Shown: positions 37,828 to 44,042 of the stretch, in pieces
Layout: every line of letters begins with the position of its first letter
Position numbering within the stretch: position 1 is the first letter of the stretch
Assembly (NCBI GenBank): GCA_019694395.1
Contig: JAIBCC010000001.1
Span: forward strand, 248,001 to 312,000
DNA length: 64,000 nucleotides
Reading direction: 5' to 3'
From: Pyrinomonadaceae bacterium
Lineage (GTDB): Bacteria; Acidobacteriota; Blastocatellia; Pyrinomonadales; Pyrinomonadaceae
The notes under the pieces: model-generated
Databases searched by the model: none
What the model was told of the DNA's origin: nothing
The model's input: only the letters and a program-made list of their open reading frames with translations
Translations under genes and position numbers: made by a program

Positions 37828-38604
37828 ATGAAAATGACAAATTCTATGGTTAAAGCTTTGATTTTGTTCTGCTTTTTGTCTTTGATGACAACCGCAGCGA
37901 TTGCTCAATCGGTAACAATTACGGTTACCAGCATTCAAGGTTCAGTCGAAATAACCCGTTTTAGTTCATCGTGGGCAAGGATCGTTAAAGTTAGTGCCAA
38001 TGATAATTTGGTGGCAGGGGATATTGTCAAAACTAATTCCAATAGTCGCGTTGTTTTAAAACTTTCTGATAATTCCCAAGCAATTATCAGTGAAAAATCA
38101 ACAATTGAGATCAAAGATACAACCAGCTCGCCTCGCACAATTTTTAATGTTATTCGCGGAAAAACAAGGGTAAAAATAGAAAAACTTGGCGGCAAACCGA
38201 ATCCGTATCGAGTGACAACGCCGACCACTGTAATTGCGGTGCGCGGAACTGAATTTGATGTTTTGGTCAAAGATGAAGAAACCAAAGTTTATGTCAACGA
38301 AGGTGAGGTCAGCGTCACCAGTATTGCTCTAACCAAAGAGGTTATCCTAACTCCAGGTAATTTTACCCAGATTCGCGGCAACCAGCCGCCCGCGCCGCCA
38401 ATCCAATTTAAGCCTGAACAAAACGACAGGTTTTTCCAACCGCGAGATGAACGACAGGGCGGAAATGCTCCAAACAATAGAGATGGTAAACCCGATGGGT
38501 CAGGACAAAATGGGCAAAACGGCGGCAGAACGCCATCTTCTATGCCGCCGGGTGGAACTCCCCCAACTCAAGGCGGTGCACCGCCCCCGCAAAAAAGACC
38601 TTGA
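37828..38604 (+). CDS. Secreted FecR-domain protein with Pro/Gly-rich tail
   Basis: 258 residues. A signal peptide (1-26, ALILFCFLSLMTTAAIAQ|S) leads into a FecR domain at about 28-170: IQGSVEITRFSSSWARIVK, GDIVKTNSNSRVVLKLSDNS, RGKTRVKIEK, then RVTTPTTVIAVRGTEFDV and YVNEGEVSVT, a strong match to the fold. The tail (175-258) is Pro/Gly/Asn-rich and disordered. FecR-type domains outside iron uptake often sit in periplasmic sensor or scaffold proteins. It is encoded 82 bp upstream of an NtrC-type regulator in the same direction and could provide the envelope input of the two-component system that follows; this is inference. Confidence 0.82.
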   Translation: MKMTNSMVKALILFCFLSLMTTAAIAQSVTITVTSIQGSVEITRFSSSWARIVKVSANDNLVAGDIVKTNSNSRVVLKLSDNSQAIISEKSTIEIKDTTSSPRTIFNVIRGKTRVKIEKLGGKPNPYRVTTPTTVIAVRGTEFDVLVKDEETKVYVNEGEVSVTSIALTKEVILTPGNFTQIRGNQPPAPPIQFKPEQNDRFFQPRDERQGGNAPNNRDGKPDGSGQNGQNGGRTPSSMPPGGTPPTQGGAPPPQKRP

Positions 38605-40299: not shown

Positions 40300-42729
40300 A
40301 TGAATTTTACAAACCGCACAACTTTTCAATGGATTAGAATTGCCGTCATTTGGCTGGTTAGTTTTTTGTCGGTTTTAGCCGTTTCTTGGTTCGCGCCTTC
40401 CCTTTCAAATGCCGCAATAAATATGCTTTTTCGGCTTCGCGGAGAGCTTCCCGCGCCCGAAAATATCGTCATTGTGGCGATTGACGATGCAAGTTTGCAA
40501 AGACTCGGCAAATTTCCCTGGTCACGAAAATTAACCGCTGATTGCTTGGATAAAATTACAGCCGGAAATCCGAAAGCGGTTGGAATTGATGTCATTTACG
40601 CCGAAGAAAGCGATTTGAGCGATGACGAAGCACTTGCCAAAGCCATCAAAAATAATGGGCGTGTTGTGCTTCCCGTTCAGCTTTACGAAAAAATTTCCAA
40701 TACAAATCCACAAAAAACTGAGATTGGCTGGCTCAATCCGATTCAAGAATTTGCCCAAAATTCCGCCGCCAAAGGTCATGCCCACGCCGCGCCTGATGTG
40801 GACGGAACTTTGCGAACTGTCCAACTGAGCAAATCCGATGACAAAGGAAATCGTTTTTGGGCTTTTGGATTGGAAACCTTGCGCGTTGCCGAAGGAATTC
40901 CGCCCAACGATTTTGAAGAAAAATCCGGTTTACTGCGTTTCGGAAATTATCAAATCAAATTAGTTTCGGACGAAATTAACCAAACCGAATATTTGAAAGG
41001 CGTTTCGATAGTCCGTCCAAACGAAATGCTTATCAATTACATCGGTGCATCTAAATCTTTTCATTACTTTAGTTTTGCCGAAGTTTTGGACGGCACGATA
41101 CCACCTGAAACTTTCAAAGACAAAATCGTTTTGATTGGCGCGACCTCGCCAACTCTGGGCGATTCGCAAGTCACTCCGTTTATGCACTTTGCCGCCGCCG
41201 AAAACAAAGAAGGCGGACAGGCAATGCCGGGAGTCGAAGTTCATGCAAACATCATCAACACCATCAAAAACCGTTTGTGGCTCGGATTTTTGCCGCAATT
41301 TTGGGAAATCTTTCTGGCAATTTCGATAATTTTAGGCGCAACTGCCGCCGTAAAATTGATTGATGGGTGGTTACAGGTGTTGATTCTGGTGCTGATGCTT
41401 TTGGCAATAATCGGAGGCAGTATTTTGGCATTCAACAATTGGCAGACGATTTTGCCTTTGCCGGAATTGCTGACTGCTTTTTTAACGGCGGTTCCGCTGC
41501 TTTTGATTGATCGTTCACTTGCCGCCAGCCATGATTTGGACATCAAACTACATCGCCTAGCCGAAGTTCAAAACGAAGTTTTATTGAACACAAATTTTGA
41601 AAATACTGAACTTACAGCGCAATCCAAACTAATTCCGCACAATCTTGAATGGAAATTGAAAGCAGTTGACGACATTTCGACACGTCTGCTTTCGCGGATG
41701 AGCTTTATCAGTCGGGTTCTCGGCGGGATGAACGAGGGAGTGATTGTTGCTGATGTCAAAAATCAAGTCGTTTTCGTCAATAATTCGCTCTCGCAGATGT
41801 TTGGAATCGAGCCAAAAACGTTTGTAAATCAAGATTTTACCGATTTCTTTCGACAACGAAATATCTTTGCTGAAAGTGAATTGAAAAAGATTGTTGAGCA
41901 AACCTTAAACGGCAAACAATTTGAAAAAGAATTCAAGTTCCGTTCACAAAATTATTTGGTTCGTTTCTCGCCTGTAAATGCGGAAAATGATGAGGTTATC
42001 GGAATTCTAGTTTTATTGACAGACGTGACCAAACAACGCGAGCTTGACCGTTTGAAAGCGGAAACGATGCAGTTTGTTTCGCACGAATTACGCGCTCCGT
42101 TGACTTCGATTCAAAGTTTGAGCGATGTTCTGCGAAAGTTCCCCGTTTCAAATGAAGAATCTAGTGAAATGTTGGACACGATTCATTCGGAAGCTATTCG
42201 ATTAAATGAACTTATCAATCGCTTTCTGGACATCAAACGGCTTGAATCCGGCGCCCAAAATTTGCAAATTTCAAAGTTTAATCTCAACAAACTTTTAGAA
42301 AATTGCGTCCAAACCGCGAATCCTTTTGCTTTGGAAAGACAATCAAAAATTCACTTTTTCAAACCCGAAAAACCAATTAACATTCAAGCCGATGCACAAC
42401 TTTTGAAACAAGCCGTTGATAATCTTTTAAATAATGCAATTAAGTATAGCCCGCAGAATTCAATGGTTGAAATTACTACACAGTCAAAACCTAAGGAGAC
42501 TCAGATTATTGTAAAAGATAAGGGTTTCGGGATTCCTAAAGAATCCTTGAATCGCGTTTTTGACAGTTTTTACCGTTTGGAAAGAGATGTTTTATCTGCC
42601 ACGGTTGGAACAGGTTTAGGGCTTTCATTTGTCAAAGAAGTTGCCGAAAAACATCACGGAAAAATCTCCGTCAACAGTGAAGAAGGTGTTGGCTCGGAAT
42701 TTATTTTAACCATTCCAAATTTGGACTGA
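40300..42729 (+). CDS. CHASE2-PAS sensor histidine kinase
   Basis: 809 residues. After a first membrane helix (about 12-32) comes a periplasmic CHASE2 domain (about 40-330: IVIVAIDDASLQRLGKFPWS, AVGIDVIYAEES, RPNEMLINYIGAS, FKDKIVLIGATSP). Two or three membrane helices (about 330-405) and a PAS domain (about 470-580, MNEGVIVADVKNQVVFVNNS) follow. The kinase core has H595 in VSHELRAPLTS, the N box NLLNNAIKYSP, DKGFGIPKES and GTGLGLSFVKE. It likely phosphorylates Asp62 of the NtrC-type regulator upstream; the pair is split by a repeat element. No Shine-Dalgarno is visible, because the repeat abuts the start. CHASE2 ligands are unknown. Confidence 0.92.
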   Translation: MNFTNRTTFQWIRIAVIWLVSFLSVLAVSWFAPSLSNAAINMLFRLRGELPAPENIVIVAIDDASLQRLGKFPWSRKLTADCLDKITAGNPKAVGIDVIYAEESDLSDDEALAKAIKNNGRVVLPVQLYEKISNTNPQKTEIGWLNPIQEFAQNSAAKGHAHAAPDVDGTLRTVQLSKSDDKGNRFWAFGLETLRVAEGIPPNDFEEKSGLLRFGNYQIKLVSDEINQTEYLKGVSIVRPNEMLINYIGASKSFHYFSFAEVLDGTIPPETFKDKIVLIGATSPTLGDSQVTPFMHFAAAENKEGGQAMPGVEVHANIINTIKNRLWLGFLPQFWEIFLAISIILGATAAVKLIDGWLQVLILVLMLLAIIGGSILAFNNWQTILPLPELLTAFLTAVPLLLIDRSLAASHDLDIKLHRLAEVQNEVLLNTNFENTELTAQSKLIPHNLEWKLKAVDDISTRLLSRMSFISRVLGGMNEGVIVADVKNQVVFVNNSLSQMFGIEPKTFVNQDFTDFFRQRNIFAESELKKIVEQTLNGKQFEKEFKFRSQNYLVRFSPVNAENDEVIGILVLLTDVTKQRELDRLKAETMQFVSHELRAPLTSIQSLSDVLRKFPVSNEESSEMLDTIHSEAIRLNELINRFLDIKRLESGAQNLQISKFNLNKLLENCVQTANPFALERQSKIHFFKPEKPINIQADAQLLKQAVDNLLNNAIKYSPQNSMVEITTQSKPKETQIIVKDKGFGIPKESLNRVFDSFYRLERDVLSATVGTGLGLSFVKEVAEKHHGKISVNSEEGVGSEFILTIPNLD

Positions 42730-42868
42730 TTAAATTTTTCTCACTCGAATCTACTCAAAAATCTCAATTCGATTAAATTTGTCACACTCTGATTTTTTAC
42801 CAATTCTTGATAAACCTGAGTCCACACATAAACCCAATCATTACTGCATTTACAATACTTTCAAACTT

Positions 42869-42884
42869 TGGCACACACCTTGCT
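42869..42884 (+). promoter_or_regulatory. Consensus sigma-54 (-24/-12) promoter
   Basis: TGGCACACACCTTGCT fits the RpoN consensus TGGCACR-N4-TTGCW at every defined position. The predicted transcript start is near 42895. It lies 140 bp after the kinase gene. The 42730-42868 stretch would hold activator sites; a TCGAAT / ATTCGA pair there is a weak candidate. An NtrC-type activator is encoded 3 kb upstream. Confidence 0.85.
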
Positions 42885-42894
42885 AAAGATAAAA

Positions 42895-43086
42895 GCGAGT
42901 AACTAAATTGGTAATCTGGCGAAAATCATTTAGTAACTCCTTTAAAAAGTAAAAGGGCTAAGTAATATCAGTTTTTTGCCAATCGAAATTGGAAAATTGA
43001 TTGCACCACGCAACATTTCGAGATGAGCCAAAAAGCAAGAAACAATTCAATTAAAACTGGCGGAAACTGATATTACTTTTTTTTCA
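42895..43086 (+). ncRNA. Structured sigma-54 leader RNA with terminator/antiterminator-like pairing
   Basis: Hairpin 1 is GAGTAACTAAAT (42897-42908) with ATTTAGTAACTC (42928-42939), 11 of 12 paired. A long helix pairs 42961-42981 with 43058-43077: 20 pairs with one bulged T and two G-T pairs, followed by eight T (43077-43084). The loop of hairpin 1, TGGCGAAAA (42917-42925), can instead pair with TTTTTGCCA (42973-42981), the left arm of that helix, so the two states exclude each other. A sub-hairpin TCGAAAT / ATTTCGA lies inside. This is either a small RNA of about 190 nt or a conditional leader of the gene at 43124. No known riboswitch class was matched. The structure is read by eye, not computed. 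Confidence 0.6.
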
Positions 43087-43123
43087 AATGTTGAACGGAT
43101 TATTAAAATTTGAGGTTTTGGAT

Positions 43124-43456
43124 ATGCTTTTATCAATTAATGACAAACCATTTATCCCGTTTTTTAGGGTTGAAAAAGGTGCAACCGAGAATATCGAATT
43201 GCTCTCCCCGATTGATAAAAGATTACATCTTAAAGAATTATTCAAATCTCATCATCGTCAAATTTTCAGACTTTGTTTACAAGTCTCAAAAAATCGGGAA
43301 ATTGCCGAAAATTTAACCGTCAATGTTTTTGTGCAATTCTTTCGTGAATTTGACAATTTAGACCGTAAACTTTTGCCTAAAGATTGTTTACGCAAATTAG
43401 CGGTAAGTCATTTAATTGACTACAAATGGCAAAAGCCCCCTGTAATTCAAAAGTAG
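43124..43456 (+). CDS. Truncated sigma-70-like protein (region 2 only)
   Basis: 110 residues from the ATG at 43124, which has GAGG eight bases upstream; an earlier ATG at 43088 lies against the leader helix and lacks a ribosome site. Residues about 37-80 match region 2 of ECF sigma factors: LKELFKSHHRQIFRLCLQVS, KNREIAENLTVNVFVQFFREF (compare 'YRRVFRLALRLTGNREDAEDLTQEVF'). Region 4, needed for -35 recognition, is missing: the protein ends 35 residues later. It may be a core-polymerase-binding modulator, a decayed sigma factor, or an anti-sigma decoy. It lies behind a sigma-54 promoter and structured leader and 61 bp before a secreted protein gene. Confidence 0.6.
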   Translation: MLLSINDKPFIPFFRVEKGATENIELLSPIDKRLHLKELFKSHHRQIFRLCLQVSKNREIAENLTVNVFVQFFREFDNLDRKLLPKDCLRKLAVSHLIDYKWQKPPVIQK

Positions 43457-43517: not shown

Positions 43518-44042
43518 ATGAACAAAAAACTATTGAATATCGCACTTTTGGCAGGACTGGCAGTTTCAGGTCTGTTGGTAACGGATAGCTTTGCACAAGG
43601 TCGCGGCGGAGGCGGCGGAGGTGGCGGTCGAGGTCCGGGTGGTCCCCCCCCAAGTTCAGGCGGATCGGGTGGCGGAATGGGAAGCGGTGGAATGCGTCGG
43701 CAAGGTCCGCCCCCATCACAAGGTGACAACACCAGCGGTCAACCACCAACGTCAGGCGACTCTTCGACAACTGAACGAAGAGGAAAGAGACCACCGCCGC
43801 CGAAAAATGAAGACGGCACGACCAATGGAGAACATCCGCCGCCAAGGGATGGAGATTCAGGTAACCGTCCAGCTCCGCCAACTGACGAAAACGGAAATCC
43901 ATTGCCACCGCCGAGTGATGGTGAAGGGTCAGGTAAACCAAGAGATCGTCGTCAGCCACCGCCAACCTCAGGTGATGGAACAAATACGCCGCCTTCGGAC
44001 ACAAACACCGGCACTAAACCGCCTAAGAAAAAGAAACCGTAG
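43518..44042 (+). CDS. Secreted Gly/Pro-rich low-complexity protein
   Basis: 174 residues. A signal peptide (1-26, IALLAGLAVSGLLVTDSFAQ|G) is followed by a Gly/Arg-rich stretch (RGGGGGGGGRGPGGPPP), then Pro/Ser/Gly/Asp-rich sequence to the end, closing in KPPKKKKP. No folded domain is expected. A different frame on the same strand and one on the opposite strand are also long and open here because of base composition; the signal peptide and the AGGAGA ribosome site mark this frame as the real one. It is probably the final exported product of the sigma-54 unit at 42869, and its tail composition resembles that of the FecR protein at 37828. Confidence 0.7.
   Translation: MNKKLLNIALLAGLAVSGLLVTDSFAQGRGGGGGGGGRGPGGPPPSSGGSGGGMGSGGMRRQGPPPSQGDNTSGQPPTSGDSSTTERRGKRPPPPKNEDGTTNGEHPPPRDGDSGNRPAPPTDENGNPLPPPSDGEGSGKPRDRRQPPPTSGDGTNTPPSDTNTGTKPPKKKKP

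What the first reader, a model, noticed from the sequence alone, without database searches (positions are those of the whole stretch)
42869..43123. Sigma-54 promoter driving a structured leader with mutually exclusive helices
The sequence shows a full match to TGGCACR-N4-TTGCW, then within 190 bases a hairpin (42897-42939) and a 20-bp long-range helix (42961-42981 with 43058-43077) followed by eight T. The hairpin loop TGGCGAAAA can pair with TTTTTGCCA in the left arm of the long helix, so the terminator-like helix and this alternative cannot coexist. That is the architecture of a riboswitch or attenuator, or of a regulated small RNA. It sits right behind a CHASE2 kinase and 3 kb from an NtrC-type activator. 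I know of no named RNA class matching it.
Basis: partly seen in the sequence, partly recalled or inferred. Interest (0 to 1): 0.78.

Follow-up and report, generated by a model that had tools for sequence, protein, structure and literature searches.

The report
Sigma-54 promoter with structured mRNA leader
A soil bacterium of the Acidobacteriota has a real, evolutionarily conserved sigma-54 switch next to its own sensor kinase and activator; the RNA it should make starts with a hairpin and contains a long stem, which looks more like a protected messenger-RNA leader than a riboswitch.

Summary
The sequence features are there. An exact sigma-54 promoter (42869-42884) is followed by a hairpin at +3 (42897-42939) and a long-range helix (42960-42980 with about 43058-43078), then a T-run. 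Eleven loci from related Blastocatellia with the same FecR / NtrC-type regulator / CHASE2-kinase order carry a sigma-54 site at the same place. In ten of them it lies behind tandem TGTCAC-like boxes 43-45 bp apart; the window has an imperfect pair, 40 bp apart. The promoter and its control by the neighbouring pair are therefore well supported. The leader's sequence is unique, but the plan 'hairpin at the 5' end, then a long helix' recurs in six loci, with some compensatory change in the four alignable ones. The proposed switch is not supported: the alternative pairing is no better than chance (p about 0.1), absent from distant relatives and about 15 kcal/mol weaker than the full structure. No Rfam family matches. 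Most likely this is the leader of a sigma-54 operon (truncated ECF-sigma gene, Gly-rich secreted protein), with a 5'-terminal protective hairpin and a rod that may terminate weakly. Sigma-54 start sites in this genome, and more weakly in seven relatives, are enriched for 5'-terminal hairpins. No transcript data exist.

The parts
37828..38604 (+). FecR-domain exported protein, first gene of the conserved cluster
   Evidence: Pfam FecR E=5e-17; same order in L088, L089, L092, L094 and the f6 loci L195, L196
38686..40071 (+). NtrC-type response regulator / sigma-54 activator (receiver, AAA+, Fis-type HTH; GSFTGA loop), presumed activator of the promoter
   Evidence: Pfam Sigma54_activat E=2e-70, Response_reg, HTH_8
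40300..42729 (+). CHASE2-PAS sensor histidine kinase, presumed partner of the activator
   Evidence: Pfam CHASE2 E=7e-56, HisKA, HATPase_c; orthologues in 11 further loci with downstream sequence
42780..42787 (+). first activator box TGTCACAC (-89 from the promoter)
   Evidence: tandem YGYCAC-like boxes 43-45 bp apart upstream of the sigma-54 site in 10 of 12 loci
42820..42826 (+). imperfect second activator box GTCCACA (-49; spacing 40 bp)
   Evidence: weaker than in relatives
42869..42884 (+). sigma-54 (-24/-12) promoter TGGCACACACCTTGCT
   Evidence: exact, unique in the window; sigma-54-like site at the same place in the 11 other loci
42895..43084 (+). predicted leader RNA from +1 to the end of the T-run
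   Evidence: fold z -3.6; transcript not demonstrated
42897..42939 (+). 5'-terminal hairpin starting at +3
   Evidence: p=0.005 against shuffles; hairpin at +1 to +4 also in other loci
42960..42980 (+). left arm of the long-range helix
   Evidence: 17 uninterrupted pairs plus 4; 1/1000 shuffles
43058..43078 (+). right arm of the long-range helix
   Evidence: 17 uninterrupted pairs plus 4; 1/1000 shuffles
43077..43084 (+). eight T, of which the first two pair in the helix
   Evidence: sequence
43124..43456 (+). 110-aa ORF resembling sigma-70 region 2 only; truncated relative of the full ECF sigma genes in syntenic loci
   Evidence: 33% identity over 64 aa to the ECF sigma of L088; Pfam Sigma70_r2 E=0.0065, below cut-off
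43518..44042 (+). Gly/Pro-rich exported protein, likely last gene of the operon
   Evidence: ORF with signal-like N terminus; Gly-rich exported proteins downstream of the promoter in several relatives

Best explanation
The CHASE2 kinase phosphorylates the adjacent NtrC-type regulator, which binds tandem TGTCAC-like boxes 89 and 49 bp upstream and activates sigma-54 polymerase at 42869. Transcription starts near 42895 and makes the 5' leader of an operon with the sigma-region-2 ORF and the Gly-rich exported protein. The first two bases are unpaired and the hairpin at +3 protects the 5' end from decay, as 5'-terminal stem-loops do for ompA and papA mRNA. The long helix is a second stable element; with its short U-run it may release some short RNA and let the rest read through. 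Shown by sequence comparison: conserved promoter, boxes and gene order, and a 5' hairpin plus long helix recurring in part of the relatives. Inferred: the phosphorelay, box recognition, the transcript, and protection or partial termination.
For: Exact promoter in a genome with 25 such sites against 3 in the control. A sigma-54-like site after the kinase gene is the best or second-best on its strand in all 12 syntenic loci. Tandem boxes 43-45 bp apart in 10 of 12; a pattern scan of 13 loci finds 12 pairs, 9 in this position and 2 upstream of the FecR gene. Leader structure: window z about -3, hairpin p=0.005, helix 1/1000. Same plan in L194-L197 with z -2.2 to -4.7, 6 pairs with changes on both sides, 4/500 shuffles. 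Those leaders run without a terminator to an RBS and gene, so they look like mRNA leaders. A 5'-terminal hairpin is enriched at 24 other sigma-54 start sites of this genome (Fisher 2e-5, weak or absent at nearly all shifted positions) and at 77 sites of 7 relatives (2.3e-4, lowest at offset 0). Stabilisation by 5' secondary structure is established elsewhere: PMC3997798.
Against: No RNA data. The leader has no sequence or covariance-model homologue. Four orthologous loci have short plain leaders of 43-70 nt (L089, L092, L093, L198), so the structure is not essential to the system. Individual 5' hairpins in the f6 leaders are not stronger than shuffles. The window's second activator box is imperfect. 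A T-run after the helix could mean the RNA ends before the ORF.
Confidence: 0.55

Rival explanations
1. A stand-alone small RNA of about 190 nt: made from the sigma-54 promoter, ended at the long helix and U-run, acting in trans like sigma-54-dependent Qrr or GlmY/GlmZ RNAs.
For: Helix followed by a T-run at 43077-43084; compact stable fold; closest relative L088 also has a G-C helix followed by five T before the ECF gene.
Against: The four alignable f6 leaders have no U-run and lead straight to an RBS and gene; no canonical terminator found on this strand; A-U rich stem base and arms about 80 nt apart; no sequence conservation as expected of a trans-acting RNA.
Confidence: 0.22
2. Attenuator or riboswitch: the loop 42917-42925 pairs with the left arm 42973-42981 and so prevents the terminator-like helix.
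For: The 9-bp alternative exists and is part of the minimum-energy fold of the nascent RNA ending at 42985. L088 has a comparable alternative (p about 0.01) and near-equal energies for the two states.
Against: At chance level in the window (p 0.09-0.11) and in all four f6 leaders; loses by about 15 kcal/mol in the full RNA; no Rfam match above gathering; no conserved ligand-pocket-like sequence seen.
Confidence: 0.08
3. DNA-level palindromes: the inverted repeats are operator sites or the remains of a small mobile element rather than RNA structure.
For: Long near-perfect inverted repeat; MITE-like look.
Against: Single copy in the genome, no obvious target duplication; the f6 relatives have different sequences with the same plan and compensatory changes with GU pairs, which favours RNA.
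Confidence: 0.1

Closest known systems
NtrC-family / sigma-54 enhancer-dependent promoters
   Same: Exact -24/-12 element, activator with receiver, AAA+ and Fis-type HTH next door, upstream paired boxes
   Different: Boxes are direct repeats 43-45 bp apart in relatives (about four helical turns) rather than inverted repeats; sensor is CHASE2 with a FecR partner gene; target operons often hold an ECF sigma gene
5'-terminal stem-loops that stabilise mRNA (E. coli ompA, papA; described in PMC3997798)
   Same: Hairpin begins within 1-4 nt of the predicted 5' end
   Different: Half-life not measured; occurs here at many sigma-54 starts of one genome
Sigma-54-dependent small RNAs (Qrr, GlmY/GlmZ; from general knowledge)
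   Same: Sigma-54 promoter near activator genes, compact RNA
   Different: No trans-acting sequence conserved; relatives look like mRNA leaders
Transcription attenuators / Rfam leader families
   Same: 5' hairpin, long helix with T-run, possible alternative pairing
   Different: Alternative pairing at chance level, no Rfam match; a weak Trp_leader score (24.9 bits, gathering 41) is on the opposite strand and is taken as chance

Membership tests
Sigma-54 (RpoN) dependent promoter | TGGCAC-N5-TTGC with GG and GC at fixed spacing | tested here: met
   Exact match, unique in window; 25 against 3 in genome control
Sigma-54 (RpoN) dependent promoter | Upstream activator sites and a cognate enhancer-binding protein | tested here: met
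   Paired boxes in 10 of 12 loci, imperfect in the window; activator gene two genes upstream; binding itself not tested
Sigma-54 (RpoN) dependent promoter | Transcription depends on rpoN and activator | not testable with these tools
   Needs 5'-end mapping
5'-terminal stem-loop mRNA stabiliser | Stem starts within a few nt of the 5' end | tested here: met
   Starts at +3 of the predicted start, p=0.005; start site itself predicted
5'-terminal stem-loop mRNA stabiliser | Lengthens mRNA half-life | not testable with these tools
   Needs half-life assay
Riboswitch / attenuator | Two mutually exclusive structures of comparable stability, conserved in relatives | tested here: not met
   Alternative at chance level, about 15 kcal/mol weaker; absent in f6 leaders
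Riboswitch / attenuator | Match to a described RNA family | tested here: not met
   No Rfam hit above gathering in window or relatives
Intrinsic terminator | G-C rich short hairpin directly followed by a U-run | tested here: not met
   Canonical scan finds none on the + strand; stem base A-U rich; six unpaired U
Sigma-54 small RNA (Qrr / GlmY type) | Discrete RNA with conserved base-pairing region | tested here: inconclusive
   No DNA homologue in 60 relatives; no transcript data

The most novel reading that the evidence does not exclude
In these Blastocatellia, RNAs made by sigma-54 polymerase are systematically built to begin with a 5'-terminal hairpin, a promoter-class-linked RNA protection or early-transcription rule, and this leader is a strong instance within a new FecR / CHASE2 / NtrC / direct-repeat-box regulon.
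Probability: 0.3. Interest if true: 0.65.

Novelty: new variant of a known kind. Interest (0 to 1): 0.45.

Why it matters
It gives a concrete, comparative definition of a sigma-54 control unit in Acidobacteriota: sensor, activator, paired boxes, promoter and target operon, including likely control of ECF sigma genes. If the hairpin rule holds, it links the choice of sigma factor to the fate of the RNA made, which can be tested directly by 5'-end mapping and half-life measurement. It also shows how an apparent riboswitch can be argued down with relatives.

Tried and rejected
Riboswitch/attenuator: alternative pairing tested against shuffles and in relatives, rejected as the leading reading. Rfam with gathering and loose thresholds: nothing credible. 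DNA-level homologues in own genome and 60 relatives: none. Covariance model from four f6 leaders: finds only its own members convincingly, not the window. Mobile-element origin: single copy. Leader peptide: no conserved small ORF seen in the leaders read by eye. Kinase homologues outside these two families: too distant to align leaders; their synteny was not examined. Orthologue G089 (72% identical over 123 aa) would be the best comparison, but its contig ends inside the kinase gene. Literature searches for CHASE2 with FecR and sigma-54, for Acidobacteria with sigma-54 and small RNA, and for sigma54 with direct-repeat activating sequences returned nothing in the held library.

Full report
Observation. 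The window holds an exact sigma-54 promoter at 42869-42884, the only exact match in 64 kb. With one C/T position relaxed, the whole genome holds 25 such sites against 3 for the reversed pattern, so this organism uses sigma-54 widely and this site is very likely real. Counting C of the -12 GC as -12, the start is the G at 42895. A hairpin begins at +3 (42897-42939); none of 200 dinucleotide shuffles does as well. A long-range helix of 17 uninterrupted pairs (42960-42976 with 43062-43078) extends inward by four pairs; 1 of 1000 shuffles reaches that length. The 196-base fold has z=-3.6. Two of the eight T after the helix are inside it.

Comparison. No DNA relative of the leader exists in the genome or in 60 relatives. 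The gene order FecR protein, NtrC-type regulator, CHASE2 kinase, however, is found in other Blastocatellia of two families; 11 such loci extend past the kinase gene, some of them cut on the FecR side by the contig end. In every one a sigma-54-like site follows the kinase gene, ranking first or second on its strand in the whole locus; two are weak (L092 and L199, TTGAA at -12). Upstream of it ten of the twelve loci carry two YGYCAC-type boxes 43-45 bp apart (in L089 the second reads TGTCCC); the two exceptions are the window, with TGTCAC at -89 and an imperfect GTCCAC at -49, and L199, with a 38-bp pair. A pattern scan over 13 loci finds 12 such pairs, nine at this position and two upstream of the FecR gene, which suggests autoregulation in some relatives. 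This is strong phylogenetic footprinting for control of the promoter by the neighbouring activator, though binding is inferred.

Leader structure in relatives. Four f6 loci (L194-L197) have alignable leaders of about 150-170 nt: a hairpin at +2/+3, then a long helix GGCGCGTTTC...GAAACGCGCC, then an RBS and a Gly-rich or similar exported protein. Fold z-scores are -2.2 to -4.7, while upstream controls are near zero. Six pairs change on both sides, matched by 4 of 500 shuffles, and sliding the partners destroys the pairing; only four sequences were available, so this is modest support. L088, the closest relative, also has a hairpin and a G-C helix followed by five T, before a full-length ECF sigma gene. 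L089, L092, L093 and L198 have short leaders without a long helix. The structural plan therefore recurs but is not universal, and a covariance model of the f6 leaders does not recognise the window, so common descent of the RNA is not shown.

The switch. The proposed alternative pairing has -11.3 kcal/mol as a duplex, reached by 87-109 of 1000 shuffles. Forced in the full RNA it gives -30.5 against -45.2. In f6 leaders the corresponding pairing is at shuffle level; in L088 it is better than most shuffles (5/500). The riboswitch/attenuator reading is thus weak. As a terminator the helix is atypical and not found by the canonical scan.

Wider pattern. Predicted transcripts from the 24 other exact sigma-54 sites of this genome tend to begin with a hairpin at +1 to +4: 8 of 24 at p<0.05, Fisher 2.5e-5. 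The effect peaks at the start site; most shifted positions are not significant, with a weaker signal at -130 (0.0045) and small residuals at +8 and +16. In 77 sites of seven other Blastocatellia, many of them chance matches, the start position again gives the lowest p (2.3e-4); in G037, the one other genome with a clear excess of sites, it is not significant by itself (0.13), and one shifted position (+80) reached 0.006. This supports reading the +3 hairpin as an RNA 5'-end element, but the general rule is only a statistical trend. That 5' secondary structure blocks RppH/RNase E access and stabilises mRNA is established in E. coli (PMC3997798); that it does so here is inference. Across the 12 syntenic leaders themselves the combined 5'-hairpin test gives p about 5e-4, with related sequences not fully independent.

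Downstream genes. ORF 43124-43456 resembles sigma-70 region 2 and aligns with the ECF sigma of L088 (33% over 64 aa), but ends before region 4; the reading frames behind it hold none. It is either a decayed or a repurposed sigma gene. The Gly-rich exported protein follows at 43518.

Conclusion. A sigma-54 operon leader with a 5'-terminal hairpin and a long helix, under a locally encoded kinase/activator pair, is the best-supported explanation (0.55). A small RNA ending at the helix remains possible (0.22). The general hairpin rule is the most novel reading still open.

Noticed in passing
window 43124-43456: ORF with only sigma-70 region 2, where syntenic relatives have complete ECF sigma genes; truncated or repurposed sigma factor.
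   Followed up: partly
L089:1339, L094:1789 (reverse-complemented), L092 upstream of FecR: The same kind of tandem boxes, 41-43 bp apart, lie upstream of the FecR gene in three relatives, suggesting autoregulation; not seen upstream of FecR in the window.
   Followed up: partly
24 other sigma-54 sites of the genome (L212-L236 without L230): Predicted sigma-54 transcripts are enriched for hairpins at their very 5' end; L233 and L234 are clear cases.
   Followed up: yes
L194-L197 (leaders given): A conserved leader RNA without Rfam match (hairpin plus GGCGCGTTTC helix with inner hairpin) in four species of one family.
   Followed up: partly
L231 (own genome C79:472254, minus strand): Another sigma-54 site followed by a very stable long rod (-63.7 kcal/mol in 200 nt) before the next ORF.
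   Followed up: no
L089:6612-8027: In one relative the sigma-54 site precedes a di-haem oxidoreductase (DHOR) gene and then an ECF sigma gene, so the target operon varies between species.
   Followed up: no
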